Shown here: positions 42,812 to 64,000 of the stretch, one piece after another
Position numbering within the stretch: the first letter of the stretch is position 1
How the letters are laid out: each line of letters opens with the position of its first letter
Source of the DNA: Chalara sp. BL73
Taxonomy: Eukaryota; Ascomycota; Leotiomycetes; Helotiales
DNA length: 64,000 nt
NCBI GenBank assembly: GCA_918026815.1
Contig: CAKJVC010000124.1
Coordinates: forward strand, 248,001-312,000
Reading direction: 5' to 3'
Notes under the pieces: generated by a model
Seen by the model: the letters and a program-made list of their open reading frames with translations, nothing else
The model's database searches: none
What the model was told of the DNA's origin: nothing
Translations under genes and position numbers: made by a program

Positions 42812-42948
42812 ATCAGAAAGAATGTGATCAAAGATATTCTTCTATTATTCGTGCAGTCACCCTATTTGTGATTCTATCTTAGTATGTCCGAAATTACACC
42901 CACCAGTGAAGCCAGCCATATACCTGACGTTCGCAATGCTGCATCTGC

Positions 42949-44850
42949 TTAAGACCTCCTTCGTACTCGAACCCTACCATCATTGTAAGGCACCTTCAGC
43001 CAGACGACATTGGTGAGCTCAGGTCTACGATCCAGACACTCAACATCATAATTCAGCACCATATAAGCCACAAACAGCTTCATTTCATTCAAGGCAAAGA
43101 ATCGCCCGGGACAAGCATACTTGCCGAAACCAAAACCCAAGAAAGTATCGTCTAGTGTTGCAGCAGACTTGTCCTGGATTGGTGCCAAGGATTTGGTTTC
43201 CTGCTGCGCTTGGTTGGTTGCATCCGTTTTCGGGTGCTCGTCCTTCATTTTGTCGAAAAGACCTTTAACACTATCTGGATTTATGAAACGATATGGATCG
43301 AAACGATATGAGTCAGGATATATGTCGTTATCGTGGTGTATAGCATCCAATGGTGCCGCAATGACAGTTCCCTTTGGAATATTTATTATGCCTTTTGAGC
43401 TCCGGATCGGGATTCCGTGTGGCTGTATAACCTATGAACTCTTTAGTAAACGAGGAAGGCTTGAGAATTAAGAATGACCTACGGTTCTAGGCAAGCCAAC
43501 AGAAGCAAATGAAGTCAGTCTCATTGATTCTCGGATTGTAGAGTCAACCAGTTTGAGTTTGGTAACCGCCTCTCGTGTCCAAGTCCCACCGGCTTCTTCG
43601 AGTACGGCCGCGCACTCCTGGCGTAACGCCTCAACGAGGGCAAGAGATTTGTCGGCATTATATATGTCTAGAATAACATTCTGTATTGTGAAACTCGTCG
43701 AATGCAACGAGATGTCATTGATATAAAGCAACCGGTGAGCAATGCGAGTGGGGTTGAGCTGCTCTGGGTTGTTTTCTTCATAGCATTCGTCGATTATCCA
43801 TTGAAGGCCATCCTTCTATATAAGACACAAAATCAGTCTTGTTTGGGAAATTTATTGCCGCTGGCAACCGAGCCAACCTACCGGAGGGTCAAAGGAAGGA
43901 TCCGAATCAGCCTTGGCCTTCTTTATGGCCGCCAGCCTCTCTTTGATCAATGGCAAACACAACTTCAAGGTTTTTCTAAATTGAAACTCGCATAACAATC
44001 CAATGAATTTCCCTGTAAGAGGTCGAAATAACCTTGGAGTTCCATTGATAAACAGGGCACCCACAAACATTGTCATGGCATGATCGCGAAGACTTTTAAG
44101 GAACTTCTCGTTGCGGCCTGTTCAAGGGACAATTAGCTAAGAATACTTCTCAAGTTCAAAAGTAGAGTGGACCTACACAGAGGCTGACCGCAGAACGCAG
44201 AGTTAGCAGCTCCTGCAATCATTTTTAAGCTTGATTCCCAGATTCGCAGCTCGTTCCACTCTGTGGTATTTCCCCACCAGCGTTTGAATCCCCATTCCAA
44301 CTCCTCTGCGATGATTGGAGTAAGGTACTTGATATTTCTAGGTATCTGCGCACGCACGACATTCAAATGGAATGGATTCCTAATGATGTCTTGATCCCCA
44401 ACCGTGTATTTCGTCTGGATGGTATCCATTTCGGTCCAATACACGTCCAGAACGCTGTCCGGCAAATTATAAATCTCCTTCAGCTGTTTCGGGGGAATCA
44501 CCACCACGTCACCACGCTCAATGTTTGGGATAATGAAGGGTGAGTTGTCTTTCGAATACTACAATATGTAACTTAGACTATCGTAGGTTTCCAAGCAATT
44601 TGATGACAAAGATGCAAGTCAAACTCACCTTCGCATACCCTTCAAACGACCAATTTTTTGATTGGGTGATCGAAGATATCGCAGCTCGTGCCTTTGAAAA
44701 TATTTGGGATTTTTCCCCAACGATAGGGTATTGCAACTTCCAGTTCTTCGCAGCTTTGTCGTCCGCAAACATGTATTTTACGAGCCCCAAAGACACAACT
44801 AAGGCGCAGAAAGCTGCCATACCATAGCTGAAAGGAACAGTATTTTCCAT
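42949..44850 (-). CDS. Cytochrome P450 monooxygenase B
   Basis: Five exons (44850-44629, 44558-44177, 44117-43882, 43815-43483, 43431-42949) give 551 residues. An N-terminal anchor spans residues ~8-28. ExxR is in STIRESMRLTSFA, DPYRFINPD is the PERF region, and the heme loop is GFGFGKYACPGRFFA. The I-helix segment (NDISLHSTSFTIQNV) lacks an AGxxTT motif but keeps HSTS, again as in ent-kaurene-oxidase-like biosynthetic P450s. A charged insert (about 40 residues with KDEHPKTDATNQAQQETK) separates the PERF region from the heme loop; this is longer than usual. All introns are 49-71 nt with GT-AG ends and phase is kept throughout. Pathway role inferred from its neighbours. Confidence 0.9.
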
Positions 44851-46255
44851 TTTCGTATATATTTAAATAGGATCATTCGCCTGAAAAATTGCAGTGGATT
44901 GTGCTAGGAGAGGTCTGGCGACGCAAGCATCCGAGGGACGGTTCAAAAACCCAGACTCTGAGAGATAGTAGTCTAATCAGCCCCTCAAGCTTTCTTGCCA
45001 TGCAGCTTTTTTAGCTGCCAAGGGATCTTTACCTATTTCCTCCAGCAGCGTCACGGGACTGGTGAGCTACTCAGTTTACTGCTATATAGAAGCATACCTG
45101 TATTCAAGTTTATTGGCAGCGTAGCCGAATGGAGGATAGTTTCGTGCCGCATTTATGCTTCATGTTCGCAACCCTCCGCGTATGTTTGCATGTGCGATCT
45201 GAAGACGTAGTATATGTACCGAAGCTTAAGCAGCATTCGGGAAATGCGAGTCCTCTTCTAACAAACGCGCTTTGCAAAGACGACACTGCATGACAACCCT
45301 ACCTCGCTGGCGAGGTATTTGCTGTGCCTCATACTACTTTAAAAAAAACAAAAAAAGTTTGCGTATAATGCTACCAAAGGGACGAAATTGCCTAGTCGAG
45401 CCACGGCACGGATGTACGGGGTAATCACATCATCTCAAAATACGACATGATATTTTCCCAACGGGAACGCCACCACAAAGCTGAACCCGCTCGTGGAAGT
45501 TCTGGGAGTAGGGAAATATGATACGGTGGGTGATGCGCTATATCGTGGAGGGTCATGTACATACCTGGCCAGGGTAGGAGGCATGATGCAGCTAGCGACA
45601 GGACAGGGAATCCTTATGCAGGGTATTGAGATGAAATGATACTGGGATGATAACCACGTTAATAGATGGTATCGAAATTGGAGACCTCGGCATAGTGTAG
45701 ATGTAGTGCTTGAAGCTTGCTAACATGGGGCTCGTCGGGTTAGGAAGTCCAGTACTGTATAGTATGAAACGTTGCTTTTATCATTGCTCACATCCTGGCT
45801 ATATAGTTTGCGGATAGGAGTGTAGCTGCCGCTGGCTAAGTAAGAATATGTTGTGCCAAGAAGTGAGCAGCCAGCAGAGTGACTCAGCTACAAACGCATT
45901 TTTCCTTAGTAAATAGATAAGTGCTTTGCCTTACTTTGCATAAATTGACAATCCCGAGGCATCTCGCTTAACCGTGGCCCTGCTTATTTAGCCGCAACGC
46001 GGTTCATGAAAGGGCTATAATTGCACCCAATGTTTTTGATAATCAGCTCCTGGTCGATTAGTGGAGAGACGGCATAGTTGCTGGCGATCATCTAGTGATC
46101 TGTTCGGCGTGAGTTTCTAGACATGGATCTCGATTTGGCCTTTCCTTCATATTACGTAATTCGAGTACACAAGTATGAGGTAGTAATATACTACAGCCTT
46201 GTCGAACCAAAAGCCTTCGCTTTGGTCGACATTTCATTTTTTGAGTCTCGACAAA
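44851..46255. other. Divergent spacer containing left end of the direct repeat
   Basis: About 1.4 kb between P450 B and the flavin oxidase. The repeat starts at 45823; the 433 bases from there to the oxidase start are identical in copy 2 except for one T-run length, so copy 2 carries the same proximal promoter. A short A-run occurs near 45342-45356. No gene is seen. Confidence 0.6.
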
Positions 46256-47737
46256 ATGAGGCTCCTGTCCCTTATTGCTGTCCTGGGCTGCATGCAGCCA
46301 GCAGTGTCGCTTGGATGGCCTTCCTTTGGTGTTAGTGATGGACAATGGAGCAAAACACTCGAACGGGATGTCTGTATTGTAGGCGGAGGAGCGAGCGGAA
46401 CTCATGCAGCGGTTTCTCTCATAGACTTGAACAAGACGGTGGTATTGATCGAGCGCAACGATTACCTTGGAGGACATACTCACACCTACGTGGACCCTGA
46501 GACCCGAGCCGTCGTAGATATTGGGGTCGTGATATTCCAGCCAGTCCCGGTTGTGTATGACTTTTTCGAAAAGTTCAATGTGTCGCTGCTCAACATGTCG
46601 TCAGTTGAAGTAAATGAGGCAGGGCAGCCCCCAAAGAAAGATGTACCAGCACTCTTGTACAATACCGTACCATACTACTTGGACTTCCGGGACGGGTCTG
46701 AAGTAACTTTAGACCTGCCCACAGATGAAGCGGTCGCTGATGCCTTCCAACGTTTCGCAGAGGTCTTGTCAACTTATTCCTACCTACTTGATGGTTACGT
46801 TCTTCCAGATCCAGTTCCAGAAGATCTCTATACTCCTTTCGGGGTCTTTCTCGAGAAATACAACCTTACTGCGGTAATCCCCATTCTTTGGAAATTCACC
46901 CAAGGAATGGGCAGCCTGCTCAACATATCTACTATTTACGTGATCAAGTATTACAACCTTGATGATCTGATATATGGGACCCAAGGATACCTGACAGAAG
47001 CAAAGGGTAATAACTCAAGGATTTACACCAAAGCTAGAGAATACATTGGCTCGGATAACCTCCTGTTAGAATCCACGGTGATTGCAACAAACCGTCAAAA
47101 CCCGAGCTCAGGCCAGCCGGAGATCCTCGTCGCGACACCCAAGGGCAATGCTTTGCTTTCCTGCAAACAGATCTTGCTTGCAACTTCTCCAGATCTTCCG
47201 AATCTCAGAGGATGGGATCTTACGAAAGAAGAATTTGCGGTCTTCTCGCAATATAGTAAAGCGAATGGATATTGGACAGGTCTGGTGAGAAACGTCGGTC
47301 TAAACCAAACCGTCTCCTATTACAACCGCGCAACGCATTCACCATCCAACATTCCAGCTCTCCCAGGGCTGTACTTTCTGGGGCCAGTCGGAGTTATCGA
47401 CGATGTGTGGTACATCAAATTTGGGGCTGAGAGCCCGGGCATGACTGATGCCCAGGTACAGCTCTACGTAGAGAGTGAGATCAGGACCATCCAACAGGTC
47501 AACAACGCTTCGCTCACCAAGCCGGAATGGCTAATATTTGAATCTCATTCGCCCTTCTTCCTTCAAGTGTCGCCCGGGGCGATTCAAAATCACTTCTTCG
47601 CGAATCTTACAGCCCTCCAAGGTGGACTAGGAGGCACAATGTTTTATACCGGAGGGGCATTTCATACCCAGTATAGCACTCTTCTGTGGCGTTTCAATCG
47701 AGATGTAGTCATTCCCAAAATGCTGCGGTCGGGTTAG
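46256..47737 (+). CDS. Secreted FAD-dependent oxidoreductase, CpaO-like (copy 1)
   Basis: Intronless gene of 493 residues. I start at MRLLSLIAVLGC because this gives a clean signal peptide (about residues 1-19); an in-frame Met at 46199 exists only because of a T6 run that is T4 in copy 2. After the mature N-terminus comes the FAD dinucleotide motif VCIVGGGASG (residues 43-48 for GGGASG), then LIERNDYLGGHTHTY, the second flavin-contact region. FTQGMGSLLN and YGTQGYLTEA are further landmarks. At least eight N-glycosylation sequons fit a secretory route. The closest named family I recognise is amine-oxidase-like beta-cyclopiazonate dehydrogenase (CpaO), which makes C-C bonds by flavin oxidation. 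The substrate here is unknown. Confidence 0.85.
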   Translation: MRLLSLIAVLGCMQPAVSLGWPSFGVSDGQWSKTLERDVCIVGGGASGTHAAVSLIDLNKTVVLIERNDYLGGHTHTYVDPETRAVVDIGVVIFQPVPVVYDFFEKFNVSLLNMSSVEVNEAGQPPKKDVPALLYNTVPYYLDFRDGSEVTLDLPTDEAVADAFQRFAEVLSTYSYLLDGYVLPDPVPEDLYTPFGVFLEKYNLTAVIPILWKFTQGMGSLLNISTIYVIKYYNLDDLIYGTQGYLTEAKGNNSRIYTKAREYIGSDNLLLESTVIATNRQNPSSGQPEILVATPKGNALLSCKQILLATSPDLPNLRGWDLTKEEFAVFSQYSKANGYWTGLVRNVGLNQTVSYYNRATHSPSNIPALPGLYFLGPVGVIDDVWYIKFGAESPGMTDAQVQLYVESEIRTIQQVNNASLTKPEWLIFESHSPFFLQVSPGAIQNHFFANLTALQGGLGGTMFYTGGAFHTQYSTLLWRFNRDVVIPKMLRSG

Positions 47738-48308
47738 AGGCCGTGGCATCAACGTAATTATGTATTTTCATTCCTAGGAATCAAAAGTTGTTGATCTCAA
47801 CGGGAAGATGTTAAGGTCGTTGCCTCAGGTCGCCATAATAGTAGTGCCTCACCTGTATAGATTATTTTTCCCGAAAGGAGAACCTTGGACTATTCAAAAT
47901 ACACAACCTTACCACACACTACAAATACTGGTGGAGACCTGCCATCTCGATAGTGATACGGTGCTTGACAAAAAAGCAGATTAGATTTTTGTTGAAAGAC
48001 CGCAAAGTCAAATATACATTTGCACTTGCAAACAAATGCCTTTTGTTGCGAGGGACATTTAGATCTTGGACAAAAAGCACGATATATTCCGTAGGTCTCC
48101 TACGTTAACTATATACAATGGAGGTCACTAACTACGGGCAGGCGCCTCCGGCGCTCCTGCACCTTGCTGCAAGGCTACAGTACAAACTGTGTGTGAGCAT
48201 TCAGGCTGGAGGAAATTACAACATCTTTCTGGACGATAGCCAACCCTCTGTAACATGGAATGTAACTATTTTCAACTTCGCCCACAGGCGTTGACCTCGC
48301 AGCCTGCC
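47738..48308. other. Intergenic within repeat copy 1
   Basis: The 3' ends of the convergent flavin oxidase and rhodopsin-domain genes lie here. An inverted arrangement GGCGCCTCCGGCGCTCC near 48140 is a small GC-rich hairpin candidate. No gene is seen; the 99-codon frame that appears in copy 2 depends on an A-run length. Confidence 0.45.
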
Positions 48309-49774
48309 CTAGCGTTTAGCTTCGCCAATCTCGGAAGACTGTTGTATGGCAGTGAATCTCCTGATGCCGCTGTGGTCATCCGTGAAAGGGGTAGCTGAGC
48401 GCTCAGAGGTGATGAAAGTGCTGAGCTTGCTTGCGTCACGCTCGTGGAGCTCATAATAATCAGATCGCACCAAGTTAGTATGCGATTCTGGATCCGCGAT
48501 GCGATTCTTGGAGCTCTTGATATTGCTTGAGGAACTCTCTGACACAGTAGATCTTGTGAAAATAGATCTTATTGTTGAAAAGAGAGGTGAGTTTGCCAGG
48601 AACTTGTTCCAAAAGGCTGCAATAGCTGGAGTGCTGCTAACCCAGATGCCGACAGCGCTGTCGACGATACTACTCTTCGAGTTACCTCTCTGAATGCAAA
48701 TAAATTGACTGGGAATTCCAATAGTACTTACGCGCATGCATTGATTTTAGGGCCATTCCAGAACTTATCCGTGCTCGTATAAATATTTACTCTGTAGTAT
48801 AGTGATATAGCTCCGGTTATTATAGTACTTGACGGGATTAGCAGAGATGACAATTCAAAAAAAAAAAAATTGCTTACTCACATTATGCCTACAGAAAAAA
48901 CTAACGCCAATCCAATCTTCTTCTTCATACTCAGGTGGAGAGCGAAAATTACAGGGATAGGGAGAATCAAAAGGGCGATATCCGCGAAAAGAGACATTGC
49001 GCCCTGTACAGGGCCCTCAACAGCCGCCTTAGCGCAACTCGAAAGAACGGCGAAGTCCCATGGCTTTCCCGCACGAGGAGAGCACCAGGCTATACTCAAG
49101 AAGACGCTTTGCCAGTACCCCGGTGTTATGATCGCTAGCAGAATGTAACAGCACCATCGGAACCATTTATTGTTCGCCGCAAATACTCTCAGGTACAGAA
49201 TTGTGACCGCTACTTTACTCGCCCAGATGAAAGGCCCGGTGAGCATCTGCAGAGCGAATTGTTGCTAGCGGCGCAGTTGCGTTAGTTTCAAGAATTAATA
49301 AATTAAAATCTCGAGAACTTGGAATGTAAAGACAAACCTTCACGTATGATGTCGTTATAGCTGACACCGGTATATCCCAAATGTGACGCCCAGTCTCCTT
49401 TGTTCCTTGGAGTATCTTAGCGCTAGAACTATACCTATTGAGTGGGAGCGGGTAGTTACCTATGACCGACATTGCAAAGAACGGAACCAAAGTTACAAAA
49501 CCTAGGATGCAGAAATCTAACCAGTCAATATGGGAAACCCCATTCTTTGCACCATAAGCAACTCACAGTCGTCCAGAAGAAGCTTCCCGTGCATCTTCGA
49601 AGTCATAGAGAGCCGTATAGTGAGAATCATCGAAGTGACTATGATGATGGGAAGTCCTACTTTGAGTACTAAATCCGCGGAATTGGGAGGATCGATGAAA
49701 TTAGGTGGGTCGCCATTTGGATTCGGTGCTAGCGGTATCGTGGACAAGTCAGTACCTGGTGGAATTGCAGCCAT
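48309..49774 (-). CDS. Rhodopsin-domain seven-span membrane protein (copy 1)
   Basis: Six exons (49774-49567, 49516-49460, 49405-49338, 49264-48882, 48827-48732, 48669-48309) give 390 residues. After a Pro/Asn-rich N-terminus the spans begin at VLKVGLPIIIVTSMILTIRL. Family landmarks are GRHIWDIPVSAI, FALQMLTGPFIWASKVAVTILYLRVF, a CysXXAxxxGPVQG-like region (CAKAAVEGPVQGAMSLFADIAL), IPVIFALHLSMKKKIGLALVF and a charged cytosolic tail. This is the fungal rhodopsin-domain family (integral membrane, often receptor-like or of unknown function). Acceptor choices for introns 2, 4 and 5 (AAG, AAG, TAG) are the least certain. Its place between two secreted flavoenzymes in a duplicated block suggests co-inheritance, but no function follows from that. 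Confidence 0.78.
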
Positions 49775-50653
49775 TGCGTAAGCTAGAAATTTCTGTCAGA
49801 GTTCGTGACAGAACTGAGAGGATTGAACAGGCTGTATCAGGCGATCTGCTGGATTTGTAAGATGCAAGAACATGCGACGAAGCAAAATGTAGATAGGGTG
49901 CGTTGTCCCACTTGTTCTTATGTGTTCATTTGCGTGCAGGGAAAATGAGTATGCTTCTCGCCTCCCTGGTCAGATCGGGCTATGGCAACTAGGCTCTAAA
50001 CTGAAGACATCTATTGTCGCAAGATGTTCTGTAGTGTGGTATAAACTTTGCTGGGCGGAATGGGCTGTGATATTCTCACACTCTGACATCGCCTAGTCAA
50101 CTGGCGGCTATCAAACGTACAGTGGCGTACTGCTGACTGAGCCCTAGCCACACAGAATTGAATACAAATAGCACTGAGGGACCTGCCAGTTCCGGCTCAT
50201 AGTTGAGATTGCAGCTTACCAGCGAGCGGTGCAGGGGTTAGCCCGAGCCGGATTTCGGGAGTTGGATTCTGAGATACTTCATGCATGGAGTTGCATTTAA
50301 CGTAAGCTGTAACCACACTCTTTCTGTTGGCTTGCTGCATCCCAACGCATGCAGTTTCATGGGAGCAGGCTTGTGTAGCGACTTTCTACATGGATTCAGT
50401 ACATTGCTAGCAAGTGTTTGAATATCCACCTTGCTAAGGCAAAGCTTTAGCTCTTCCGAGCAAGCAAATGAGTAGCGAGAAAAGACACAGGTGCAGTGAT
50501 TTCTGGAGAATCAAAATTCGAAGCCTCTTCAGCCAATTCCCAGTTGCTAAGGGTATATTTGTAATCAGGCTGCTTGTTTTCTTAAAGTCCATTATTTGAT
50601 AGTCTATCTTACTAATCACCAAATCCCTAAGAAACGAAAGCCACCAAATGCTA
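49775..50653. other. Intergenic within repeat copy 1
   Basis: Promoter side of the rhodopsin-domain gene and 3' flank of the BBE-like oxidase, which is read in the same direction. No gene is seen. One C-run (CCC here, CC in copy 2) near 49965 is the only difference between copies. Confidence 0.5.
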
Positions 50654-52221
50654 TTAAATCTCCACTTCAGAAATTTTGTATCCACCCGGAACCTCTGTCT
50701 GAAAGAAACCGGTTGGGTCGTATTTCTTACTGACTGCCTTCAATTTCGCAACACTGGCAGCTCCGTAGCCTTCCAATATCTTCTGGGTTTTATATCCATA
50801 GTTCATGAATCTATATGGGACGCTCACTCCCTGCGTAACCGCTAATGCATCTACCTTCTGAATCAGATCGAGAACGGTGGATAACACTAATGCATCATCA
50901 GAGGAGTTTGTGTACAGTGGGTTAATAAGGCAGATGACAAAGGGTCCATCTGACTCTTTCAACCCAAGAGAGTTTGGACCATGCGCCAGTGACTGAGCGA
51001 GCACTGCCTTGCTCACTGGTTGAAAGACGAAACTGAACATCAAGCCTTCCACTGCTTGGAGTTTTGCAACAGCTTCTTGCCATATAACACGAATATCAAG
51101 CATGAACTGGACAGTAGGATGGAAACTAGTCGTAAAATACAACTGGCGAGATCCATCTTTATTGAACTCAGCTTGCTCCTGTGCAAATCCCAATTGCGAA
51201 TCAAATCGAATGGTGCTGGGGGCTCCCACCAATTTTGGCTCGATTTCCAGAAACGGTTGCAGCGCGGGAGGATTGGCGACTGGTGCAGTATAATATATGT
51301 TTGAAACACAAACTTCACCGAGGCCCGAGATGTAACTTGTGGCCACGATTATTGATGCATGCACATCGGTAGTTGTGGCGAACTTGTTAAATTCATTGAC
51401 TATTGCTGGGTATGCTGTATTGTTGTAGTATGTGAAGCCTCCCCACATTTGACTATCTGCGAAGGTTTGTGTCTGCCACGACGTCACAATACCGAAATTG
51501 TTGCTGCCTCCTTTAAGTGCCACGAAGAGGTCTGCATTGACGTTCTTGTTTGCTTGGACAATTTTTCCAGATGCGAGGACAACCTCATAATTGACAATGC
51601 TATCACATACAAAGCCTTGGATAGGGGAATAGTATGACAAGCCTCCTGCTCAAGAAGTTAGTTGAAGGATCTACAACCACTTCGAATTTGCTATCAAAAC
51701 GTCGACTCACCACCTAATGATAATCCGCCTACTCCAACCGAAGACACACGACCGCCCACCACGGTTAGTCCTTGTGCCGCCAGCGTCTGGTATACATCGC
51801 CCCATCGTGCTCCCGCACCTATGGTTGCTAGTTTAGTTTTAGGGTCCACGACGACCGCGTTGGCCGTGAGCTTGGAAAGATCGATTGTGATGCCGGCTTC
51901 TATGTTGGCGCTTCCTGCCCAAGTTGTGTGTCCACCACTACGTACTGCGAACTCTGAGCAAGTTAACCGCGCATGTTTGATGATTGCCGCAACTTCCTGG
52001 GCGCTTTGCGGCTGGATGAAACACGCTGGAGAGACTTCGCTTTCAAATTGTGTAAAGTAAGATATCTGATTCGCAGTATATTCGGGGGTTCCAGGAACTA
52101 GAACTCTTCCAGGAAATGCGGCGGAAAGAATTGAACACGCTGCGGCGGCATCCGCAGTAACTGTTAAGTCGGCTGCCATAGTGCGAGACAGGACGTAGAG
52201 GAGGCTGATTAGAAGACGCAT
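50654..52221 (-). CDS. Secreted FAD-linked oxidoreductase, berberine-bridge-enzyme type (copy 1)
   Basis: Two exons, 52221-51711 and 51645-50654, give 500 residues. An N-terminal signal peptide (MRLLISLLYVLSRTMAA) precedes the FAD_binding_4 domain. The covalent FAD-binding His is in VRSGGHTTWAG. GARWGDVYQTLAAQGLTVVGGR and SLGGGLSYYSPIQGFVCD, the latter built across the single intron, are family landmarks. LKGGSNNFGIVTSW follows. The C-terminal BBE domain contains RFMNYGYKTQKILEGYG and KKYDPTGFFQ. The second covalent Cys of classical BBE is not evident, so the cofactor may be bound by His only. Such enzymes oxidise alcohols, sugars or ring systems in fungal metabolite pathways. The start lies 40 bp past the part of the repeat that can be compared in the window. 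Confidence 0.9.
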
Positions 52222-54552
52222 CGTGTGGTGGGAGAGATGTAAAAGGCGAGGGCACGTTTGGCGAAAGGTAAGGACTGCCACGCGAGCGAAAGCAGAATCA
52301 GCCAACTGTAAGCGCCGAGAAGGCAGGCACAGGAGACAAGATACAGTGTGTCCGAGATCACACAGCAGCGGTCCAGCACGACGAAGTTCGCTAATGCAGG
52401 TGCAGATGCAGGATACTGTAAAGCGAGAAGTTGACCATCCTGCAACCACTACCAACAAAAAAAACCTACGGTGATGTTGGGAACTATGTACCCAGGAATT
52501 CCACGTTTTCCGATGTCAGGATTCACATGTAACGCTTTGAAAGATACTCAACCCTGGAAAATCAATAAATCCAACTCCCACGTTCCGGCCCCACCGGAAG
52601 TCCTCCCGATATCCGACCGCCAGCTCTATCCGCAATCCGCTGGCTTGGCGAGGTGAACATGCCAGCCTCCCGCCTCCCTCCCGCAATTAGCCTTACCCCC
52701 CACCCTCCATGTCTTTCCACATGCGCCAGTCTTGGATAGTGTAAGCGAGACTGTACAAGTATATCAAATCAAATAAGCCCTTTTTAACTTCTTGCAGCAT
52801 TTAGCCTGTACTGTATTTGCATTTGATTCGAGGCTGCAGCGGGAAGGCATGGGTTGGTATTGGCAAGTCAGCCTGGACTGTGAGAGACCCGCTTAGAGAA
52901 GGAGGGATGGCCGCGAATACGACTCTACCTTACGCCTTACCCATGCTCCATTGGATTCTACGTACATCGAATCAAATACGCAATTATCACGCCTCCTCCC
53001 TGCATTCAGCCCTGGCCTTCTACCTAGCATCCTCGCAGATACTCGTGCCAACAGTTCTCATCGCCTTGGGTAGAATATCAGGGCAGCTGATTGGAGGCTC
53101 GCCCCGATTTTTGACCCTAAAACCCTGTCGATACGCTTATTGATTATACGAGAGCACAAATCAAATGTATAACATCTTCACACGTGCATGAAATGCACAT
53201 TTTGCATACTGTACAGTTTTACAGGAGCCAGTTGCTGCTATACCCATTCGGGAAGTCTCGTGTATTCTGCCGCTTATCTTACTTTTTAGTACTAGGGGTG
53301 CTAGCAAATAGTATACTGATATTTGAAGCATAAAGTGAATAAACCACTAAGAAAAGACATACTAAATGAACATTTAATCAGTTAAAAAGTTGATTAGTTA
53401 ATTTATTTACAAAAATAAAAAATAAAAATTGTATAAAAACCATATATAAATGCACATTATTATTTTTAGTAGTAATTAATTAATATTTACAATATTATAT
53501 TAACAAGTTGTAGGCTTTGTTTTGCGTTATACAGTTATTTAACTAGTTAAATTCGATTTTTTATAATAATAAATAAAAATATCAAACTTTATATTGCAAT
53601 GTTTGTTAAATACATATTATTATTTAAAACATCTAAAATGAATAAAGTACTCATAAAAGCGTATTAACACGTATATAAGAATATACGATATTTTTGTAGT
53701 AGCTAAATAATACTTTACAACCTAATAATACAATTATTAACTTTATATTAGTCTACTGCAACATGGCATTAGCAAAGTAACTAGGCTGTTTTTTAAGCTG
53801 GATATATAAGTTCCTAATTAAGCGAGGCACATAAAAGGGTATTATATTAGTTATATTTTATTTTAAGAGGGGTAGGCAAAAGTACTCAACCCACTTGTCA
53901 CCACCTTTCTAAATAGGTATAGTCTTACTCGACTATGCAGTACTACATATCGGGTGTAAAAAGCAAGGAGATAAAAGAAAGCAAGCGGATCGGCAAATCA
54001 GAACAGCTACCAGAAGATTGGAGTCGGGCTTAGCATAGGACCCGCGGATCTGTCGGAGGCATGTCTGACTTATTTCTGGACTTTTGCTGTGGCTTACCGG
54101 TCGTGACACATTCAGTAATACATTTACTGGATAGGGTTGGTGGTCGTCAATATGGCGGCACGACTGTAACAAAATATTGCAACATAGATGGTGTGACTTT
54201 AATTTACCTGCAGGCTTAGCAACCGCAGAGAAGATCCGGGTTTCGTTGACTCAGCGTTGTAAAGCCATGCATGTAACTACCGGATGTAAAAGCGAATTGT
54301 CGGCTCACTTCACCAAGTACGGCTCTATCAAAATTGTTTCCATAACGTCATATTTCGATCATTGCTTTTGTACGTAAAATCAAACACTGGCGACCCCACT
54401 TACAGCTGTGGATGATCCGAGGTAAATAGGATTGGATCTTACAGCTTCCATCTTCACGTGTTTGTACAGTGGTCTGAAGTCTGCATCATAGGTGCTTGTG
54501 CCATTCGCATGAACGAGACTCTTGCACGCATGAAAATTTACAAGAGGAAGAA
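52222..54552. other. Gene-free spacer with AT-rich core
   Basis: About 2.3 kb between the BBE-like oxidase and P450 C, read away from each other, so promoters are expected at both ends. The centre (about 53280-53880) is strongly AT-rich and frame-poor. The frame at 52817-53143 is not protein-like. Confidence 0.5.
53280..53880. repeat. AT-rich block, probable degraded repeat
   Basis: Very high A+T, dense TpA and no coding frame. It resembles the 39.9-40.6 kb block in composition but I could not align the two by eye. An old RIP-mutated element is the likely origin (inference). It lies in the unique spacer between the two visible halves of the direct repeat. Confidence 0.45.
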
Positions 54553-56993
54553 ATGTTGCTGAACATCATCTTAACAGCCTTGGGAGGTCTGATTGTGTTA
54601 GTGGTAATATGTTTCCTGAAAGCGTTGAGACAATTGAGCATCAATATCAAAAAGGCGCAGAGTACGGGACTTCAATATGTCGTTGCTCGTGAGTGTCTCA
54701 GTAAATTCCAGTGTGTCCTGTTGCCTGAGTCCGCAATTCTCGTAAAGTTTGATAAGAAACTGGAGTCAGTAGAAAGGTGAATGGAGGCTGATTGTAGATT
54801 GTAGCTTTCATGGCGGTTGGCAGTTGGCAGCTTCTAATCTCAGAATTCCTAACGCCTTGGTTGCTATATTTCCCGATCACAAGGGATTGGGAATGGGTAC
54901 AGTAGGCTTACTTCCCTAAACTTTGTTCCAAACCCTTTTTCTAACCTTCGTAGCTTGCAAAAGCGCAATCTCTCCTGGTTCAATCTCCGAGCTCCGGAGT
55001 CCAAATACGGAGACACATGGATGGTCGTGACACCTTTCACCTGCTCTCTCAAAACTAGCAACGCTGAACTTATCTCGCAAGTATTGTCACGCACTAAAGA
55101 CTTCCACAAACCGATTCAGAGCTATAAGATCTTGAACTTGTTTGGAGAAAATATATTGTCGAGTGAAGGGGAGACATGGAGGAGGCACAAAAAGATTGTA
55201 GGGATCGGTTTTGGAGAGAAGAGTAACCGGTACGTTTTCGAAGAAAGCGTGAAGCAGGGAAGGGGGATGTTGGAGGAGTGGATGAATGAAAGCAAGATTG
55301 GCGCGCAAGAGGATGAAACTAAGGAATTTGTGGTCAAAAATGCGGCCGAGGGGACTGCGGCTCTGAGTTTGCATGTAATCTGTGCGGCTGGATTTGGAGT
55401 GCCACAGCTGTGGCCTCATGAAGGCGAAGAGAAATTGAACGGAATGGGTATTCCTGGGTTCAGCGGACATACACTGATAAAGGATCACCAAATGTCCATG
55501 AAAGCAGGATTGATTCAATTGCTGCATCTCATACTTTGGGTGTTTATTCTGCCACATTGGATGTTGAGTATGACTTCCGTACCTGAGATACTCTCATTCT
55601 TTCTTATTTCCCACTCATGTTGTTTCCAGAGGAGCAAAGTCTATTGGCTAATCTAACCTGTTTAGAGATATCGCCATTTAAGGCACCTAGAGCTGCATTT
55701 GAGGCTTTTATAGAGTGTAAAGCCTACTTCAAGGAATTGATAGAGGCTAAGACAAAAATGGCTCAAGATGATCATGGAATCGCTGAGACGTCGGAAGAGA
55801 AACGTGGGATAGATCTGTTAGGTAAAACCAGCCACTTCTCCGCCACACATATACGCCGAGGCTAGTTTAACCAAACTGACTATTTCATTGAAACAGGTGC
55901 TATGATGAAGGCTTCTGCAGTGCCACCTCCCTCCCAAGCACGTATTGCAGATAATGGCAAGGAAAGTTTCACCCTCAGTGAAAATGAGATCATCGGGAAC
56001 TCTTTTATTTTTCTCCTCGCGGGACATGAGACGACGGCGAATAGTATTTATTTTAGTATGATATATCTTGCTTGTAACCCTGGGGCGCAGAGAGCGATGC
56101 AGGGCGATATCGATCGGATTTTAGACGGGAGAGACGTCAGCGAGCTTGAGTATCATAAAGGTAAGATGCTGTGTCACACCTACTCTTCTTGTTTCCAAAA
56201 TCAGAAAGAAATACAGCTGTTAACTGATATTTAAACTGTGCACAGATATGCCTCGTCTCTACAATAGCTTAGTGGGAGCAGTTTTCAACGAAGAGGTTCG
56301 GCTTATTCCCGCCACTCCGGATGTACCCCGAATTGTCTTTGTAGACCAAACGGTACATATGGACGGTGCCGACCTTGTGATTCCATCCGGGACCTACCTG
56401 CATGTAAATGTAGTTGGTGTCAACCGGAATCCACGGTACTGGGGAGGTGGTAAAATAGGAGACTTAGATGAATTTGTTCCCGCGAGGTGGTTGAGAAGTA
56501 TAGGTGAGGACGAAGGAGAGAAAGGGGACGAGAAGGAAACGAGTTTCGATGGCTTTCAGCCAGGGATTGGGGAACATATCAAAAGTTTATGGAAACCAGA
56601 GAAAGGGGCTTTCATGAGTTTCTCAGAAGGGGCGAGAGTCTGTCCTGGGAAGCGGTTCGCACAGGTTGAGACTACGGCAGTCCTGGCTAGCATTTTCTCC
56701 ACCTGGAGTGTTGAATTAGACACGAGTGAGTGGGCTAGTGATGATGAATTAGAAAGGATGGATGGCGCTGAAAAGGTACGTGATTTCTTTTTTGTTCCGA
56801 GGTTTAGGCTGACGGGTTATTTCGATAGAAAGATATTTATGCAAATGCAGTTCGAAGTGCTCATGAGAAGATACGGAGGAGTGATCAGGTTATCACGTTG
56901 CAGATGACAGGAGAGGACAAGGTGCCTTTGAGATTTATAAAAAGAGGTATGGAGAGGATCAGTGGACGTGAAATTTCGAAAGAAGATTTTTAA
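54553..56993 (+). CDS. Cytochrome P450 monooxygenase C
   Basis: Seven exons (54553-54688, 54844-54901, 54954-55567, 55666-55821, 55897-56160, 56246-56775, 56829-56993) give 640 residues, long for a P450. A membrane anchor (LLNIILTALGGLIVLVVICF) opens it. The C-helix is GETWRRHKKIVG; the I-helix LLAGHETTANS is the classical oxygen-activating motif. ExxR is EEVR in VFNEEVRLIPA, and the heme loop is FMSFSEGARVCPGKRFA. The extra length sits in two hydrophilic insertions (after LIEAKTKMAQDD and between ARWLRS and the heme loop). The last intron (AAG|GTACGT...GATAG|AAA) is needed to reach a normal tail (VPLRFIKRG). This P450 class (classical AGxETT) differs from P450s A and B. The first two joins are the least certain. 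Confidence 0.82.
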
Positions 56994-58079
56994 TATAACG
57001 CTCGGCCAAGGAAAGCCTCAACTTGGAGTGTTTGGCTAATTAGAAGAGTTTATTTTAAAGTTACGCGAGTAACTAGAGTGTCAAGTTTTCCTGTCTCAAC
57101 TTAAGCATTTAGTTGGCTATTATTACTATTAAATTTACATGTTCGAAAGTACAAAATTCTGTTTTGCTAATATTTATTTCAGCTTTTGCTTAATTAATAT
57201 ACATTTATTTATTAAGTTTCAATGTAGCTAAGGCCGATGAGCAGTTTTAGCTTATGCCTGTTGCTAGTATAAGGCCACGAACCACCCTGTACAGACACGC
57301 ATTGGCATGAAACACATGATGGTACCAGGGAAATATTAGTACTAACAAGGCTATGGCACAAATCCCAGGATAGTAGAAATTACTAACTAGCATTCATAAA
57401 CCACAAGCACTAGGAAAGTAATAGTACCACCAGCGGGAAACATCTACATACTCGTTATAATAGTAATATGGCACAAGGTGAAAAGGACCTCCGTTTGGGA
57501 CTTAAGAATCACGCAACGGAGTCTGGAGGTTGTAGACTCTTGCAGATTCAAGAGGTTATATAAGTGGATAGGTTTTCTTAGATAAAAGCGTTGTGATCAA
57601 ATGCTCTAGTTATCTGAATATAAGTTATTTAGCTAGCTTTTGTAACGATAGCTGCCGCTGGCTAAGTAAGAATATGTTGTGCCAAGAAGTGAGCAGCCAG
57701 CAGAGTGACTCAGCTACAAACGCATTTTTCCTTAGTAAATAGATAAGTGCTTTGCCTTACTTTGCATAAATTGACAATCCCGAGGCATCTCGCTTAACCG
57801 TGGCCCTGCTTATTTAGCCGCAACGCGGTTCATGAAAGGGCTATAATTGCACCCAATGTTTTTGATAATCAGCTCCTGGTCGATTAGTGGAGAGACGGCA
57901 TAGTTGCTGGCGATCATCTAGTGATCTGTTCGGCGTGAGTTTCTAGACATGGATCTCGATTTGGCCTTTCCTTCATATTACGTAATTCGAGTACACAAGT
58001 ATGAGGTAGTAATATACTACAGCCTTGTCGAACCAAAAGCCTTCGCTTTGGTCGACATTTCATTTTGAGTCTCGACAAA
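56994..58079. other. Spacer holding the repeat junction
   Basis: AT-rich 3' flank of P450 C (to about 57240), then unique DNA up to 57648, then copy 2 of the repeat starts at 57649 with the promoter-proximal region of the second flavin oxidase. No gene is seen. Confidence 0.6.
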
Positions 58080-59561
58080 ATGAGGCTCCTGTCCCTTATT
58101 GCTGTCCTGGGCTGCATGCAGCCAGCAGTGTCGCTTGGATGGCCTTCCTTTGGTGTTAGTGATGGACAATGGAGCAAAACACTCGAACGGGATGTCTGTA
58201 TTGTAGGCGGAGGAGCGAGCGGAACTCATGCAGCGGTTTCTCTCATAGACTTGAACAAGACGGTGGTATTGATCGAGCGCAACGATTACCTTGGAGGACA
58301 TACTCACACCTACGTGGACCCTGAGACCCGAGCCGTCGTAGATATTGGGGTCGTGATATTCCAGCCAGTCCCGGTTGTGTATGACTTTTTCGAAAAGTTC
58401 AATGTGTCGCTGCTCAACATGTCGTCAGTTGAAGTAAATGAGGCAGGGCAGCCCCCAAAGAAAGATGTACCAGCACTCTTGTACAATACCGTACCATACT
58501 ACTTGGACTTCCGGGACGGGTCTGAAGTAACTTTAGACCTGCCCACAGATGAAGCGGTCGCTGATGCCTTCCAACGTTTCGCAGAGGTCTTGTCAACTTA
58601 TTCCTACCTACTTGATGGTTACGTTCTTCCAGATCCAGTTCCAGAAGATCTCTATACTCCTTTCGGGGTCTTTCTCGAGAAATACAACCTTACTGCGGTA
58701 ATCCCCATTCTTTGGAAATTCACCCAAGGAATGGGCAGCCTGCTCAACATATCTACTATTTACGTGATCAAGTATTACAACCTTGATGATCTGATATATG
58801 GGACCCAAGGATACCTGACAGAAGCAAAGGGTAATAACTCAAGGATTTACACCAAAGCTAGAGAATACATTGGCTCGGATAACCTCCTGTTAGAATCCAC
58901 GGTGATTGCAACAAACCGTCAAAACCCGAGCTCAGGCCAGCCGGAGATCCTCGTCGCGACACCCAAGGGCAATGCTTTGCTTTCCTGCAAACAGATCTTG
59001 CTTGCAACTTCTCCAGATCTTCCGAATCTCAGAGGATGGGATCTTACGAAAGAAGAATTTGCGGTCTTCTCGCAATATAGTAAAGCGAATGGATATTGGA
59101 CAGGTCTGGTGAGAAACGTCGGTCTAAACCAAACCGTCTCCTATTACAACCGCGCAACGCATTCACCATCCAACATTCCAGCTCTCCCAGGGCTGTACTT
59201 TCTGGGGCCAGTCGGAGTTATCGACGATGTGTGGTACATCAAATTTGGGGCTGAGAGCCCGGGCATGACTGATGCCCAGGTACAGCTCTACGTAGAGAGT
59301 GAGATCAGGACCATCCAACAGGTCAACAACGCTTCGCTCACCAAGCCGGAATGGCTAATATTTGAATCTCATTCGCCCTTCTTCCTTCAAGTGTCGCCCG
59401 GGGCGATTCAAAATCACTTCTTCGCGAATCTTACAGCCCTCCAAGGTGGACTAGGAGGCACAATGTTTTATACCGGAGGGGCATTTCATACCCAGTATAG
59501 CACTCTTCTGTGGCGTTTCAATCGAGATGTAGTCATTCCCAAAATGCTGCGGTCGGGTTAG
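58080..59561 (+). CDS. Secreted FAD-dependent oxidoreductase, CpaO-like (copy 2)
   Basis: Its 493-residue protein is identical to the copy at 46256-47737, with the same signal peptide, the GGGASG flavin motif at residues 43-48 and the same sequons. The upstream T-run is T4 instead of T6, so the frame ahead of the Met opens only five codons earlier; this supports the internal MRLLSL start in both copies. The 5' flank matches copy 1 for 431 bases, so both copies should carry the same proximal promoter. Whether two functional genes really exist depends on the duplication being genuine. Confidence 0.85.
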   Translation: MRLLSLIAVLGCMQPAVSLGWPSFGVSDGQWSKTLERDVCIVGGGASGTHAAVSLIDLNKTVVLIERNDYLGGHTHTYVDPETRAVVDIGVVIFQPVPVVYDFFEKFNVSLLNMSSVEVNEAGQPPKKDVPALLYNTVPYYLDFRDGSEVTLDLPTDEAVADAFQRFAEVLSTYSYLLDGYVLPDPVPEDLYTPFGVFLEKYNLTAVIPILWKFTQGMGSLLNISTIYVIKYYNLDDLIYGTQGYLTEAKGNNSRIYTKAREYIGSDNLLLESTVIATNRQNPSSGQPEILVATPKGNALLSCKQILLATSPDLPNLRGWDLTKEEFAVFSQYSKANGYWTGLVRNVGLNQTVSYYNRATHSPSNIPALPGLYFLGPVGVIDDVWYIKFGAESPGMTDAQVQLYVESEIRTIQQVNNASLTKPEWLIFESHSPFFLQVSPGAIQNHFFANLTALQGGLGGTMFYTGGAFHTQYSTLLWRFNRDVVIPKMLRSG

Positions 59562-60131
59562 AGGCCGTGGCATCAACGTAATTATGTATTTTCATTCCTA
59601 GGAATCAAAAGTTGTTGATCTCAACGGGAAGATGTTAAGGTCGTTGCCTCAGGTCGCCATAATAGTAGTGCCTCACCTGTATAGATTATTTTTCCCGAAA
59701 GGAGAACCTTGGACTATTCAAAATACACAACCTTACCACACACTACAAATACTGGTGGAGACCTGCCATCTCGATAGTGATACGGTGCTTGACAAAAAGC
59801 AGATTAGATTTTTGTTGAAAGACCGCAAAGTCAAATATACATTTGCACTTGCAAACAAATGCCTTTTGTTGCGAGGGACATTTAGATCTTGGACAAAAAG
59901 CACGATATATTCCGTAGGTCTCCTACGTTAACTATATACAATGGAGGTCACTAACTACGGGCAGGCGCCTCCGGCGCTCCTGCACCTTGCTGCAAGGCTA
60001 CAGTACAAACTGTGTGTGAGCATTCAGGCTGGAGGAAATTACAACATCTTTCTGGACGATAGCCAACCCTCTGTAACATGGAATGTAACTATTTTCAACT
60101 TCGCCCACAGGCGTTGACCTCGCAGCCTGCC
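59562..60131. other. Intergenic within repeat copy 2
   Basis: Same content as 47738-48308. An A-run of five instead of six near 59795 opens a 99-codon frame (59632-59931) that is closed in copy 1, which argues that it is not a gene. Confidence 0.5.
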
Positions 60132-61594
60132 CTAGCGTTTAGCTTCGCCAATCTCGGAAGACTGTTGTATGGCAGTGAATCTCCTGATGCCGCTGTGGTC
60201 ATCCGTGAAAGGGGTAGCTGAGCGCTCAGAGGTGATGAAAGTGCTGAGCTTGCTTGCGTCACGCTCGTGGAGCTCATAATAATCAGATCGCACCAAGTTA
60301 GTATGCGATTCTGGATCCGCGATGCGATTCTTGGAGCTCTTGATATTGCTTGAGGAACTCTCTGACACAGTAGATCTTGTGAAAATAGATCTTATTGTTG
60401 AAAAGAGAGGTGAGTTTGCCAGGAACTTGTTCCAAAAGGCTGCAATAGCTGGAGTGCTGCTAACCCAGATGCCGACAGCGCTGTCGACGATACTACTCTT
60501 CGAGTTACCTCTCTGAATGCAAATAAATTGACTGGGAATTCCAATAGTACTTACGCGCATGCATTGATTTTAGGGCCATTCCAGAACTTATCCGTGCTCG
60601 TATAAATATTTACTCTGTAGTATAGTGATATAGCTCCGGTTATTATAGTACTTGACGGGATTAGCAGAGATGACAATTCAAAAAAAAAAATTGCTTACTC
60701 ACATTATGCCTACAGAAAAACTAACGCCAATCCAATCTTCTTCTTCATACTCAGGTGGAGAGCGAAAATTACAGGGATAGGGAGAATCAAAAGGGCGATA
60801 TCCGCGAAAAGAGACATTGCGCCCTGTACAGGGCCCTCAACAGCCGCCTTAGCGCAACTCGAAAGAACGGCGAAGTCCCATGGCTTTCCCGCACGAGGAG
60901 AGCACCAGGCTATACTCAAGAAGACGCTTTGCCAGTACCCCGGTGTTATGATCGCTAGCAGAATGTAACAGCACCATCGGAACCATTTATTGTTCGCCGC
61001 AAATACTCTCAGGTACAGAATTGTGACCGCTACTTTACTCGCCCAGATGAAAGGCCCGGTGAGCATCTGCAGAGCGAATTGTTGCTAGCGGCGCAGTTGC
61101 GTTAGTTTCAAGAATTAATAAATTAAAATCTCGAGAACTTGGAATGTAAAGACAAACCTTCACGTATGATGTCGTTATAGCTGACACCGGTATATCCCAA
61201 ATGTGACGCCCAGTCTCCTTTGTTCCTTGGAGTATCTTAGCGCTAGAACTATACCTATTGAGTGGGAGCGGGTAGTTACCTATGACCGACATTGCAAAGA
61301 ACGGAACCAAAGTTACAAAACCTAGGATGCAGAAATCTAACCAGTCAATATGGGAAACCCCATTCTTTGCACCATAAGCAACTCACAGTCGTCCAGAAGA
61401 AGCTTCCCGTGCATCTTCGAAGTCATAGAGAGCCGTATAGTGAGAATCATCGAAGTGACTATGATGATGGGAAGTCCTACTTTGAGTACTAAATCCGCGG
61501 AATTGGGAGGATCGATGAAATTAGGTGGGTCGCCATTTGGATTCGGTGCTAGCGGTATCGTGGACAAGTCAGTACCTGGTGGAATTGCAGCCAT
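60132..61594 (-). pseudogene. Rhodopsin-domain membrane protein, copy 2, frameshifted
   Basis: Same six-exon layout as copy 1 (61594-61387, 61336-61280, 61225-61158, 61084-60703, 60650-60555, 60492-60132). Exon 4 is 382 nt instead of 383, because a run of six A residues (48895 region) is five here (60716-60720). The frame shifts right after the KKKIGLALVF segment and meets a stop two codons later, removing the last spans and the cytosolic tail. If real, this copy encodes a truncated protein of about 240 residues. If it is a homopolymer sequencing error, the gene is intact. The intronic A-run just next to it also differs (A13 versus A11). Confidence 0.6.
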
Positions 61595-62472
61595 TGCGTA
61601 AGCTAGAAATTTCTGTCAGAGTTCGTGACAGAACTGAGAGGATTGAACAGGCTGTATCAGGCGATCTGCTGGATTTGTAAGATGCAAGAACATGCGACGA
61701 AGCAAAATGTAGATAGGGTGCGTTGTCCCACTTGTTCTTATGTGTTCATTTGCGTGCAGGGAAAATGAGTATGCTTCTCGCCTCCTGGTCAGATCGGGCT
61801 ATGGCAACTAGGCTCTAAACTGAAGACATCTATTGTCGCAAGATGTTCTGTAGTGTGGTATAAACTTTGCTGGGCGGAATGGGCTGTGATATTCTCACAC
61901 TCTGACATCGCCTAGTCAACTGGCGGCTATCAAACGTACAGTGGCGTACTGCTGACTGAGCCCTAGCCACACAGAATTGAATACAAATAGCACTGAGGGA
62001 CCTGCCAGTTCCGGCTCATAGTTGAGATTGCAGCTTACCAGCGAGCGGTGCAGGGGTTAGCCCGAGCCGGATTTCGGGAGTTGGATTCTGAGATACTTCA
62101 TGCATGGAGTTGCATTTAACGTAAGCTGTAACCACACTCTTTCTGTTGGCTTGCTGCATCCCAACGCATGCAGTTTCATGGGAGCAGGCTTGTGTAGCGA
62201 CTTTCTACATGGATTCAGTACATTGCTAGCAAGTGTTTGAATATCCACCTTGCTAAGGCAAAGCTTTAGCTCTTCCGAGCAAGCAAATGAGTAGCGAGAA
62301 AAGACACAGGTGCAGTGATTTCTGGAGAATCAAAATTCGAAGCCTCTTCAGCCAATTCCCAGTTGCTAAGGGTATATTTGTAATCAGGCTGCTTGTTTTC
62401 TTAAAGTCCATTATTTGATAGTCTATCTTACTAATCACCAAATCCCTAAGAAACGAAAGCCACCAAATGCTA
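61595..62472. other. Intergenic within repeat copy 2
   Basis: Same as 49775-50653 apart from one missing C near 61784. No gene is seen. Confidence 0.5.
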
Positions 62473-64000
62473 TTAAATCTCCACTTCAGAAATTTTGTAT
62501 CCACCCGGAACCTCTGTCTGAAAGAAACCGGTTGGGTCGTATTTCTTACTGACTGCCTTCAATTTCGCAACACTGGCAGCTCCGTAGCCTTCCAATATCT
62601 TCTGGGTTTTATATCCATAGTTCATGAATCTATATGGGACGCTCACTCCCTGCGTAACCGCTAATGCATCTACCTTCTGAATCAGATCGAGAACGGTGGA
62701 TAACACTAATGCATCATCAGAGGAGTTTGTGTACAGTGGGTTAATAAGGCAGATGACAAAGGGTCCATCTGACTCTTTCAACCCAAGAGAGTTTGGACCA
62801 TGCGCCAGTGACTGAGCGAGCACTGCCTTGCTCACTGGTTGAAAGACGAAACTGAACATCAAGCCTTCCACTGCTTGGAGTTTTGCAACAGCTTCTTGCC
62901 ATATAACACGAATATCAAGCATGAACTGGACAGTAGGATGGAAACTAGTCGTAAAATACAACTGGCGAGATCCATCTTTATTGAACTCAGCTTGCTCCTG
63001 TGCAAATCCCAATTGCGAATCAAATCGAATGGTGCTGGGGGCTCCCACCAATTTTGGCTCGATTTCCAGAAACGGTTGCAGCGCGGGAGGATTGGCGACT
63101 GGTGCAGTATAATATATGTTTGAAACACAAACTTCACCGAGGCCCGAGATGTAACTTGTGGCCACGATTATTGATGCATGCACATCGGTAGTTGTGGCGA
63201 ACTTGTTAAATTCATTGACTATTGCTGGGTATGCTGTATTGTTGTAGTATGTGAAGCCTCCCCACATTTGACTATCTGCGAAGGTTTGTGTCTGCCACGA
63301 CGTCACAATACCGAAATTGTTGCTGCCTCCTTTAAGTGCCACGAAGAGGTCTGCATTGACGTTCTTGTTTGCTTGGACAATTTTTCCAGATGCGAGGACA
63401 ACCTCATAATTGACAATGCTATCACATACAAAGCCTTGGATAGGGGAATAGTATGACAAGCCTCCTGCTCAAGAAGTTAGTTGAAGGATCTACAACCACT
63501 TCGAATTTGCTATCAAAACGTCGACTCACCACCTAATGATAATCCGCCTACTCCAACCGAAGACACACGACCGCCCACCACGGTTAGTCCTTGTGCCGCC
63601 AGCGTCTGGTATACATCGCCCCATCGTGCTCCCGCACCTATGGTTGCTAGTTTAGTTTTAGGGTCCACGACGACCGCGTTGGCCGTGAGCTTGGAAAGAT
63701 CGATTGTGATGCCGGCTTCTATGTTGGCGCTTCCTGCCCAAGTTGTGTGTCCACCACTACGTACTGCGAACTCTGAGCAAGTTAACCGCGCATGTTTGAT
63801 GATTGCCGCAACTTCCTGGGCGCTTTGCGGCTGGATGAAACACGCTGGAGAGACTTCGCTTTCAAATTGTGTAAAGTAAGATATCTGATTCGCAGTATAT
63901 TCGGGGGTTCCAGGAACTAGAACTCTTCCAGGAAATGCGGCGGAAAGAATTGAACACGCTGCGGCGGCATCCGCAGTAACTGTTAAGTCGGCTGCCATAG
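62473..64000 (-). CDS. Secreted FAD-linked oxidoreductase, BBE type (copy 2, 5' end outside window)
   Basis: Exon 2 is 63464-62473 and exon 1 runs from 63530 beyond the window edge; by comparison with copy 1 the start codon would lie 40 bp past base 64000, so only the signal peptide region is missing. All visible codons match the copy at 50654-52221, including VRSGGHTTWAG, the intron with its GAGCAG acceptor and the KKYDPTGFFQ C-terminal region. No frameshift is visible in this copy. Confidence 0.85.

What the first reader, a model, noticed from the sequence alone, without database searches (positions are those of the whole stretch)
45823..64000. Large direct repeat carrying a three-gene flavoenzyme/membrane-protein module
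Bases 45823-52181 recur at 57649-64000 with no base substitution that I can see. The block carries a CpaO-like oxidase, a rhodopsin-domain protein and a BBE-like oxidase. Segmental duplication of tailoring genes inside a metabolite cluster is unusual and would double gene dosage. The left junction is abrupt and has no visible transposon end or target-site duplication.
Basis: seen in the sequence. Interest (0 to 1): 0.75.

Follow-up and report, generated by a model that had tools for sequence, protein, structure and literature searches.

The report
Probable false tandem duplication in assembly
A stretch of four fungal metabolism genes appears twice in a row, but the two copies differ almost only by small length differences of the kind that long-read sequencing makes, so the second copy is more likely an assembly mistake than a real gene duplication.

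Summary
The repeat is in the letters: window 45823-52181 recurs at 57649-64000 with five indels, all in single-base runs, and no substitution. It is the visible part of something larger. On contig C113 the unit is 11,826 bp (45823-57648) and the second copy follows with no spacer, ending at window-equivalent 69479. The unit holds four genes, not three: CpaO-like flavoenzyme, fungal-rhodopsin-domain protein, BBE-like oxidase, P450.

Over 11.8 kb there is no isolated substitution: 16 homopolymer-length indels plus one 77-bp cluster (4 substitutions, 2 indels). The 16 lie in blocks. One clearly, another probably, breaks a gene of copy 2. The junction has no microhomology.

The assembly holds other near-identical stretches: C25/C3, C70/C73, C70/C9, and a direct duplication about 8.1 kb apart on C100. 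Both flanks of the unit have one near-identical place.

Best reading: homotype false duplication (under-collapsed long-read sequence), 0.70. A real, very recent tandem duplication (0.27) is not excluded: no reads are available here.

The parts
45823..57648 (.). Unit, copy 1 (11,826 bp)
   Evidence: Self-alignment of the contig. Four pieces (45823-46400; 45823-46000 as part of a longer query; 52400-54500; 54600-57400) were each found at two places in the assembly; the right end also matches a dispersed element
57649..64000 (.). Unit, copy 2, part inside the window; it goes on to window-equivalent 69479 (C113:317479), 11,831 bp in all
57648..57649 (.). Junction of the two copies: no spacer, no microhomology, no N
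46256..47737 (+). CpaO-like FAD oxidoreductase, 493 aa; second copy starts from the homologous ATG in copy 2 (frame 58065-59561 as listed)
   Evidence: PF13450, PF12831, PF01593; beta-cyclopiazonate dehydrogenase structures 9kp8, 9vex at about 1e-53; start codon; copy 2 frame
48309..49774 (-). Protein with fungal rhodopsin domain, several exons (ends inferred from open frames)
   Evidence: PF20684 on the piece 48878-49246; pieces 49215-49490 and 48309-48737 gave no Pfam match
50654..52221 (-). BBE-like FAD-linked oxidase in two exons
   Evidence: PF01565 on 51694-52458; none on 50654-51640; sub-cut-off NCBIfam matches on both pieces; intron-like boundary and start codon
54553..56907 (+). Cytochrome P450, several exons (start inferred)
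   Evidence: PF00067 on three pieces, one of them below Pfam's cut-off; no match on a fourth piece
53294..53370 (.). The only cluster with substitutions between the copies: 4 substitutions and 2 indels in 77 bp, between genes
57554..57648 (+). Piece of a diverged dispersed element cut by the right breakpoint; the element is whole after copy 2 (about C113:317385-317538)

Best explanation
The second copy is most likely a homotype false duplication: one 11.8-kb stretch of a fungal chromosome was written twice, end to end, because long reads or contig ends carrying the same sequence were not collapsed. Polishing then served one copy better in one block and the other copy better in the next. The true locus would hold each of the four genes once. 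Shown: an exact tandem with no spacer or microhomology, no isolated substitution, block-wise homopolymer indels, and other near-identical redundant stretches in the same assembly. Inferred: that the indels are sequencing errors, and that reads would not support the junction.
For: Zero spacer and zero microhomology. Outside one 77-bp cluster, 16 of 16 differences are homopolymer-length indels and none is a substitution. Their direction is blocked (copy 2 shorter in 5, then copy 1 in 10, then copy 2 in 1; 0.2% of 200,000 shuffles give so few blocks). One indel interrupts the P450 frame in copy 2 within a few codons while copy 1 stays open; another probably shifts the rhodopsin-domain gene of copy 2. 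Other redundancy: C25/C3, C70/C73, C70/C9, a direct duplication on C100 in 2 of 2 sampled pieces. Published descriptions of homotype false duplications (about read length, near contig boundaries, differing consensus quality) fit (passages).
Against: No read data. There is no N gap at the junction, whereas Ko et al. [quoted passage not shown] Both breakpoints look intergenic, around four apparently complete genes. The last 3.5 kb of copy 1, which would be a contig end under this reading, shows no shortfall against copy 2. The comparison C25/C3 is not the same kind of difference: only 2 of its 7 indels lie in single-base runs. The 77-bp cluster with substitutions is unexplained. The other redundant places were not sampled at random and may be real. 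Block-wise errors could also arise in a real identical duplication whose polishing reads cannot be placed (inference).
Confidence: 0.7

Rival explanations
1. A real, very recent head-to-tail tandem duplication of four tailoring genes, formed by blunt end joining or a replication error, so young that hardly a substitution has accumulated. The indels are consensus errors that remain because polishing reads could not be assigned between identical copies.
For: Exact tandem; breakpoints outside the four apparently complete genes; no N at the junction; both flanks single-copy apart from diverged relatives of the left one; copy 1's end is not error-rich.
Against: No microhomology or repeat shared by the breakpoints; other redundant near-identical stretches in the assembly; no substitution outside one cluster, so it would have to be extremely young.
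Confidence: 0.27
2. Two haplotypes or strains of the same locus were placed one after the other (heterotype false duplication).
For: A 77-bp cluster with 4 substitutions and 2 indels could be allelic.
Against: No other substitution in 11.8 kb; two different haplotypes would be expected to differ in more places.
Confidence: 0.02
3. The unit is cargo of a transposon or other mobile element.
For: A dispersed element lies across the right breakpoint.
Against: No terminal repeat or target-site duplication at the breakpoints; the left breakpoint is not dispersed; four pieces of the unit occur only at these two places.
Confidence: 0.01

Closest known systems
Homotype false duplication in long-read assemblies (Rhie et al. 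2021, PMC8081667; Ko et al. 2022, PMC9516828; passages seen)
   Same: Near-identical adjacent copies, about the length of a long read, differing consensus quality between copies, further redundancy in small contigs
   Different: No assembly gap at the junction; read depth and junction reads not available here
Recent tandem segmental duplication
   Same: Head-to-tail, same strand, four apparently complete genes, flanks not duplicated
   Different: No substitutions outside one cluster, no breakpoint homology, homopolymer indels in blocks
CpaO, beta-cyclopiazonate dehydrogenase (PDB 9kp8, 9vex)
   Same: The first gene's product matches over residues 30-487 of 493 (E about 1e-53)
   Different: Substrate unknown; the neighbourhood was not shown to be a cyclopiazonate pathway

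Membership tests
Homotype false duplication | Copies differ in consensus quality | tested here: met
   16 homopolymer indels in direction-blocks; P450 frame broken in copy 2 only, rhodopsin-domain gene probably too. That these are errors is inferred
Homotype false duplication | No haplotype-specific variants | tested here: inconclusive
   No substitution outside a 77-bp cluster with 4; the k-mers of the reads could not be examined
Homotype false duplication | Length about that of a sequencing read | tested here: inconclusive
   11.8 kb here, about 8.1 kb spacing on C100; read lengths of this project unknown
Homotype false duplication | Assembly gap or contig boundary at the junction | tested here: inconclusive
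   No N at the junction; a boundary closed without N cannot be seen
[quoted passage not shown] junction without read support | not testable with these tools
   No reads available
Real recent tandem duplication | Adjacent, same orientation, flanks single-copy | tested here: met
Real recent tandem duplication | Breakpoint homology or microhomology (usual, not required) | tested here: not met
   0 bp on both sides; left breakpoint not dispersed
Real recent tandem duplication | Spanning reads, full depth per copy | not testable with these tools
   No reads available
Transposon-carried cargo | Terminal repeats or target-site duplication at the unit ends, copies elsewhere | tested here: not met
   four pieces only at these two places
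CpaO-like flavoenzyme (first gene) | Full-length similarity to CpaO | tested here: met
   FAD-domain Pfam matches. Activity not tested

The most novel reading that the evidence does not exclude
A genuine, newly formed tandem duplication of four metabolite-cluster tailoring genes in a filamentous ascomycete, without the transitions that repeat-induced point mutation would leave, caught within few generations of its origin; if the C100 duplication is real too, this fungus forms such 8-12-kb tandem duplications repeatedly.
Probability: 0.2. Interest if true: 0.5.

Novelty: not a real feature. Interest (0 to 1): 0.12.

Why it matters
Taken at face value the repeat would be annotated as a gene-dosage gain in a metabolite cluster, with one or two 'pseudogenes' in the second copy. 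The evidence says that the differences are probably consensus errors and that the second copy may not exist. The other near-identical stretches of this assembly (C100, C25/C3, C70/C73, C70/C9) need the same check before any claim about gene gain. If reads do support the junction, it becomes a clean case of a very young tandem duplication.

Tried and rejected
Transposon or cassette mobility: four pieces of the unit were each found at only two places in the assembly; no end signatures. Breakpoint homology: none. The dispersed element at the right breakpoint was aligned with ten other copies and its strand folded; it cannot have mediated an exchange because the left breakpoint lacks it. Repeat-induced point mutation (recalled as a process of this group of fungi; whether this one has it is unknown): no isolated transition. 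Homopolymer-run counts per copy against the rest of the contig: too few runs to tell. A crude codon-usage score for gene finding was uninformative. Organism: the closest named protein is 68% identical (Cudoniella acicularis, where only 7,996 candidates were scored and 120 of 146 hits listed), so a leotiomycete is likely but the species is unknown. A literature search on those names gave 17 papers, 15 listed, none opened. A search on tandem duplication in fungal biosynthetic clusters gave 13 papers; listing only, none opened, no matching case by title or abstract start. Searches were searches of which three papers were read as passages.

Limits: of contig C113 only bases 1-98000 and 188001-394999 were read (305 of 702.6 kb); in them no other near-identical pair of this size was seen. 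The element counts are lower bounds by the tool's own statement. The redundant pairs elsewhere were met through that element and through equal scores in its hit lists, not at random, so they give no rate. On C100 only two pieces (400 and 200 bp) were tested, both duplicated. Identities in the genome search tables are rounded.

Full report
What is there. The window lies at C113:248001-312000 of a 58.66-Mb, 199-contig genome; C113 is 702,575 bp. The genes are those of a filamentous ascomycete; the best named relative of the first gene's product is from Cudoniella acicularis, 68% identical. The finding's repeat is exact in its coordinates: 45823-52181 against 57649-64000, no substitution, five indels. 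With the downstream contig added, the repeat extends to 57648 and 69479: an 11,826-bp unit followed at once by an 11,831-bp second copy. Within the 305 kb of C113 that were read there is no other near-identical pair of this size. Four pieces of the unit were searched in the whole assembly and each was found at two places, these two. The right flank (C113:317599-321599) was found once. The left flank (40500-44800) was found once as itself, plus four diverged matches on C100 at 66-78%.

Genes. The unit holds a 493-aa CpaO-like FAD oxidoreductase (46256-47737 +; Pfam; beta-cyclopiazonate dehydrogenase structures 9kp8 and 9vex at about 1e-53), a protein with the fungal rhodopsin domain (about 48309-49774 -; PF20684 on one of three pieces scanned), a BBE-like oxidase (50654-52221 -; PF01565 on its first piece and none on its second; intron-like boundary) and a P450 (about 54553-56907 +; PF00067 on three pieces, one below cut-off; none on a fourth). 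The ends of the spliced genes are inferred. As far as these frames show, both breakpoints are intergenic: the left one 433 bp before the CpaO-like start codon, the right one 741 bp after the P450's last frame. Neighbours include a tryptophan-halogenase-like piece, an O-methyltransferase piece, FMO-like pieces (one below cut-off), further P450 pieces (one below cut-off), an MFS transporter, a beta-eliminating lyase and a fungal transcription-factor match just below cut-off. Pfam was run on selected open frames only; a 953-aa frame at the window's left edge was not scanned, so a backbone enzyme cannot be excluded. A metabolite cluster is plausible but no product is shown.

The differences between the copies. 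The alignment has 18 indels and 4 substitutions. All 4 substitutions and 2 of the indels sit in one 77-bp intergenic cluster (53294-53370). The other 16 indels are all changes in the length of a single-base run. Along the unit they come in three blocks: five where copy 2 is shorter (46237-49964), ten where copy 1 is shorter (52696-54082), one where copy 2 is shorter (55262); 0.2% of 200,000 shuffles give as few blocks. Ordinary mutation would be expected to bring substitutions as well. Two of the indels lie in coding sequence. In the P450 the frame of copy 1 stays open to the end of the stretch examined, while that of copy 2 meets a stop a few codons after the site. In the rhodopsin-domain gene the site is close to an exon end, and that copy 1 is the intact one is inferred from the Pfam match reaching the end of its frame and a donor-like sequence after it: probable, not certain. 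A nanopore study of a fungus describes homopolymer errors that alter reading frames (passages of PMC7500977); it also reports that over-long runs were more frequent than over-short ones in its polished assemblies, so length alone does not tell which copy is wrong.

The junction. There is no spacer, no N and no microhomology. The left breakpoint sequence is not dispersed. The right breakpoint falls inside a diverged dispersed element: 18 matches, two of them the locus itself, and 39 shorter matches besides the two full-length ones. The element is cut at the end of copy 1 and whole after copy 2, as any tandem duplication or unmerged overlap ending there would give.

The assembly. Following the element led by accident to other redundant stretches. 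Contig C25, exactly 10,000 bp, begins with 1.8 kb that repeat C3 with 7 indels and 1 substitution, all in its first 1.1 kb; only 2 of the 7 indels are in single-base runs, so this is not the same error profile as at C113. C73 and C70 (33.6 and 24.9 kb) share 3.1 kb at a reported 100% with 4 bases' difference in length. Another part of C70 equals a piece of C9 over 300 bp. The far end of C25 resembles three more contigs, C36, C35 and C76, at 96-98%. On C100, two of two sampled pieces 3.3 kb apart recur about 8.1 kb downstream on the same strand at a reported 100%, with 2 and 1 bases' difference in length. These places were not sampled at random and some may be real, but they show that near-identical redundancy is not peculiar to the locus of the finding.

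Interpretation. Papers of the Vertebrate Genomes Project describe homotype false duplications: under-collapsed sequence caused by read errors, often at contig boundaries, about as long as a read, with differing consensus quality (passages of PMC8081667 and PMC9516828). The locus fits part of that description. Against it, those authors found false duplications most often separated by a gap, which is absent here, and the end of copy 1 is not error-rich. What would decide, depth and reads across the junction, cannot be tested here. I put 0.70 on a false duplication and 0.27 on a real, very recent one. In either case the differences between the copies, including the apparent pseudogenes, are most likely technical.

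Noticed in passing
C100:157700-158099 with 165777-166174, and 161000-161199 with 169103-169303: A second direct duplication on another contig, copies about 8.1 kb apart, at a reported 100% with only 1-2 bases' length difference.
   Followed up: partly
C25:1-1824 (L037) and C3:1248803-1250629 (L038): A contig of exactly 10,000 bp begins with a near-copy of part of a 1.9-Mb contig; 7 indels and 1 substitution, all in its first 1.1 kb. Its far end resembles C36, C35 and C76.
   Followed up: partly
C73:5583-8690 / C70:9124-12227; C70:3600-3899 / C9:1450075-1450374: Small contig C70 shares near-identical stretches with C73 (3.1 kb) and with C9 (300 bp).
   Followed up: partly
C100:205743-208308: Diverged relatives (66-78%) of the MFS transporter and neighbouring P450 that lie left of the unit, possibly a paralogous gene pair, on the same contig as the C100 duplication.
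   Followed up: no
window 57554-57648 and C113:317385-317538; L030-L039: A diverged dispersed element of roughly 150-280 bp with many copies in the genome; some hits pair up about 6.4 kb apart with another repeat, which suggests the ends of a larger element.
   Followed up: partly
window 53294-53370 against 65118-65194: The only cluster with substitutions between the two copies: 4 substitutions and 2 indels in 77 bp of intergenic sequence; error or real variation, unexplained.
   Followed up: no
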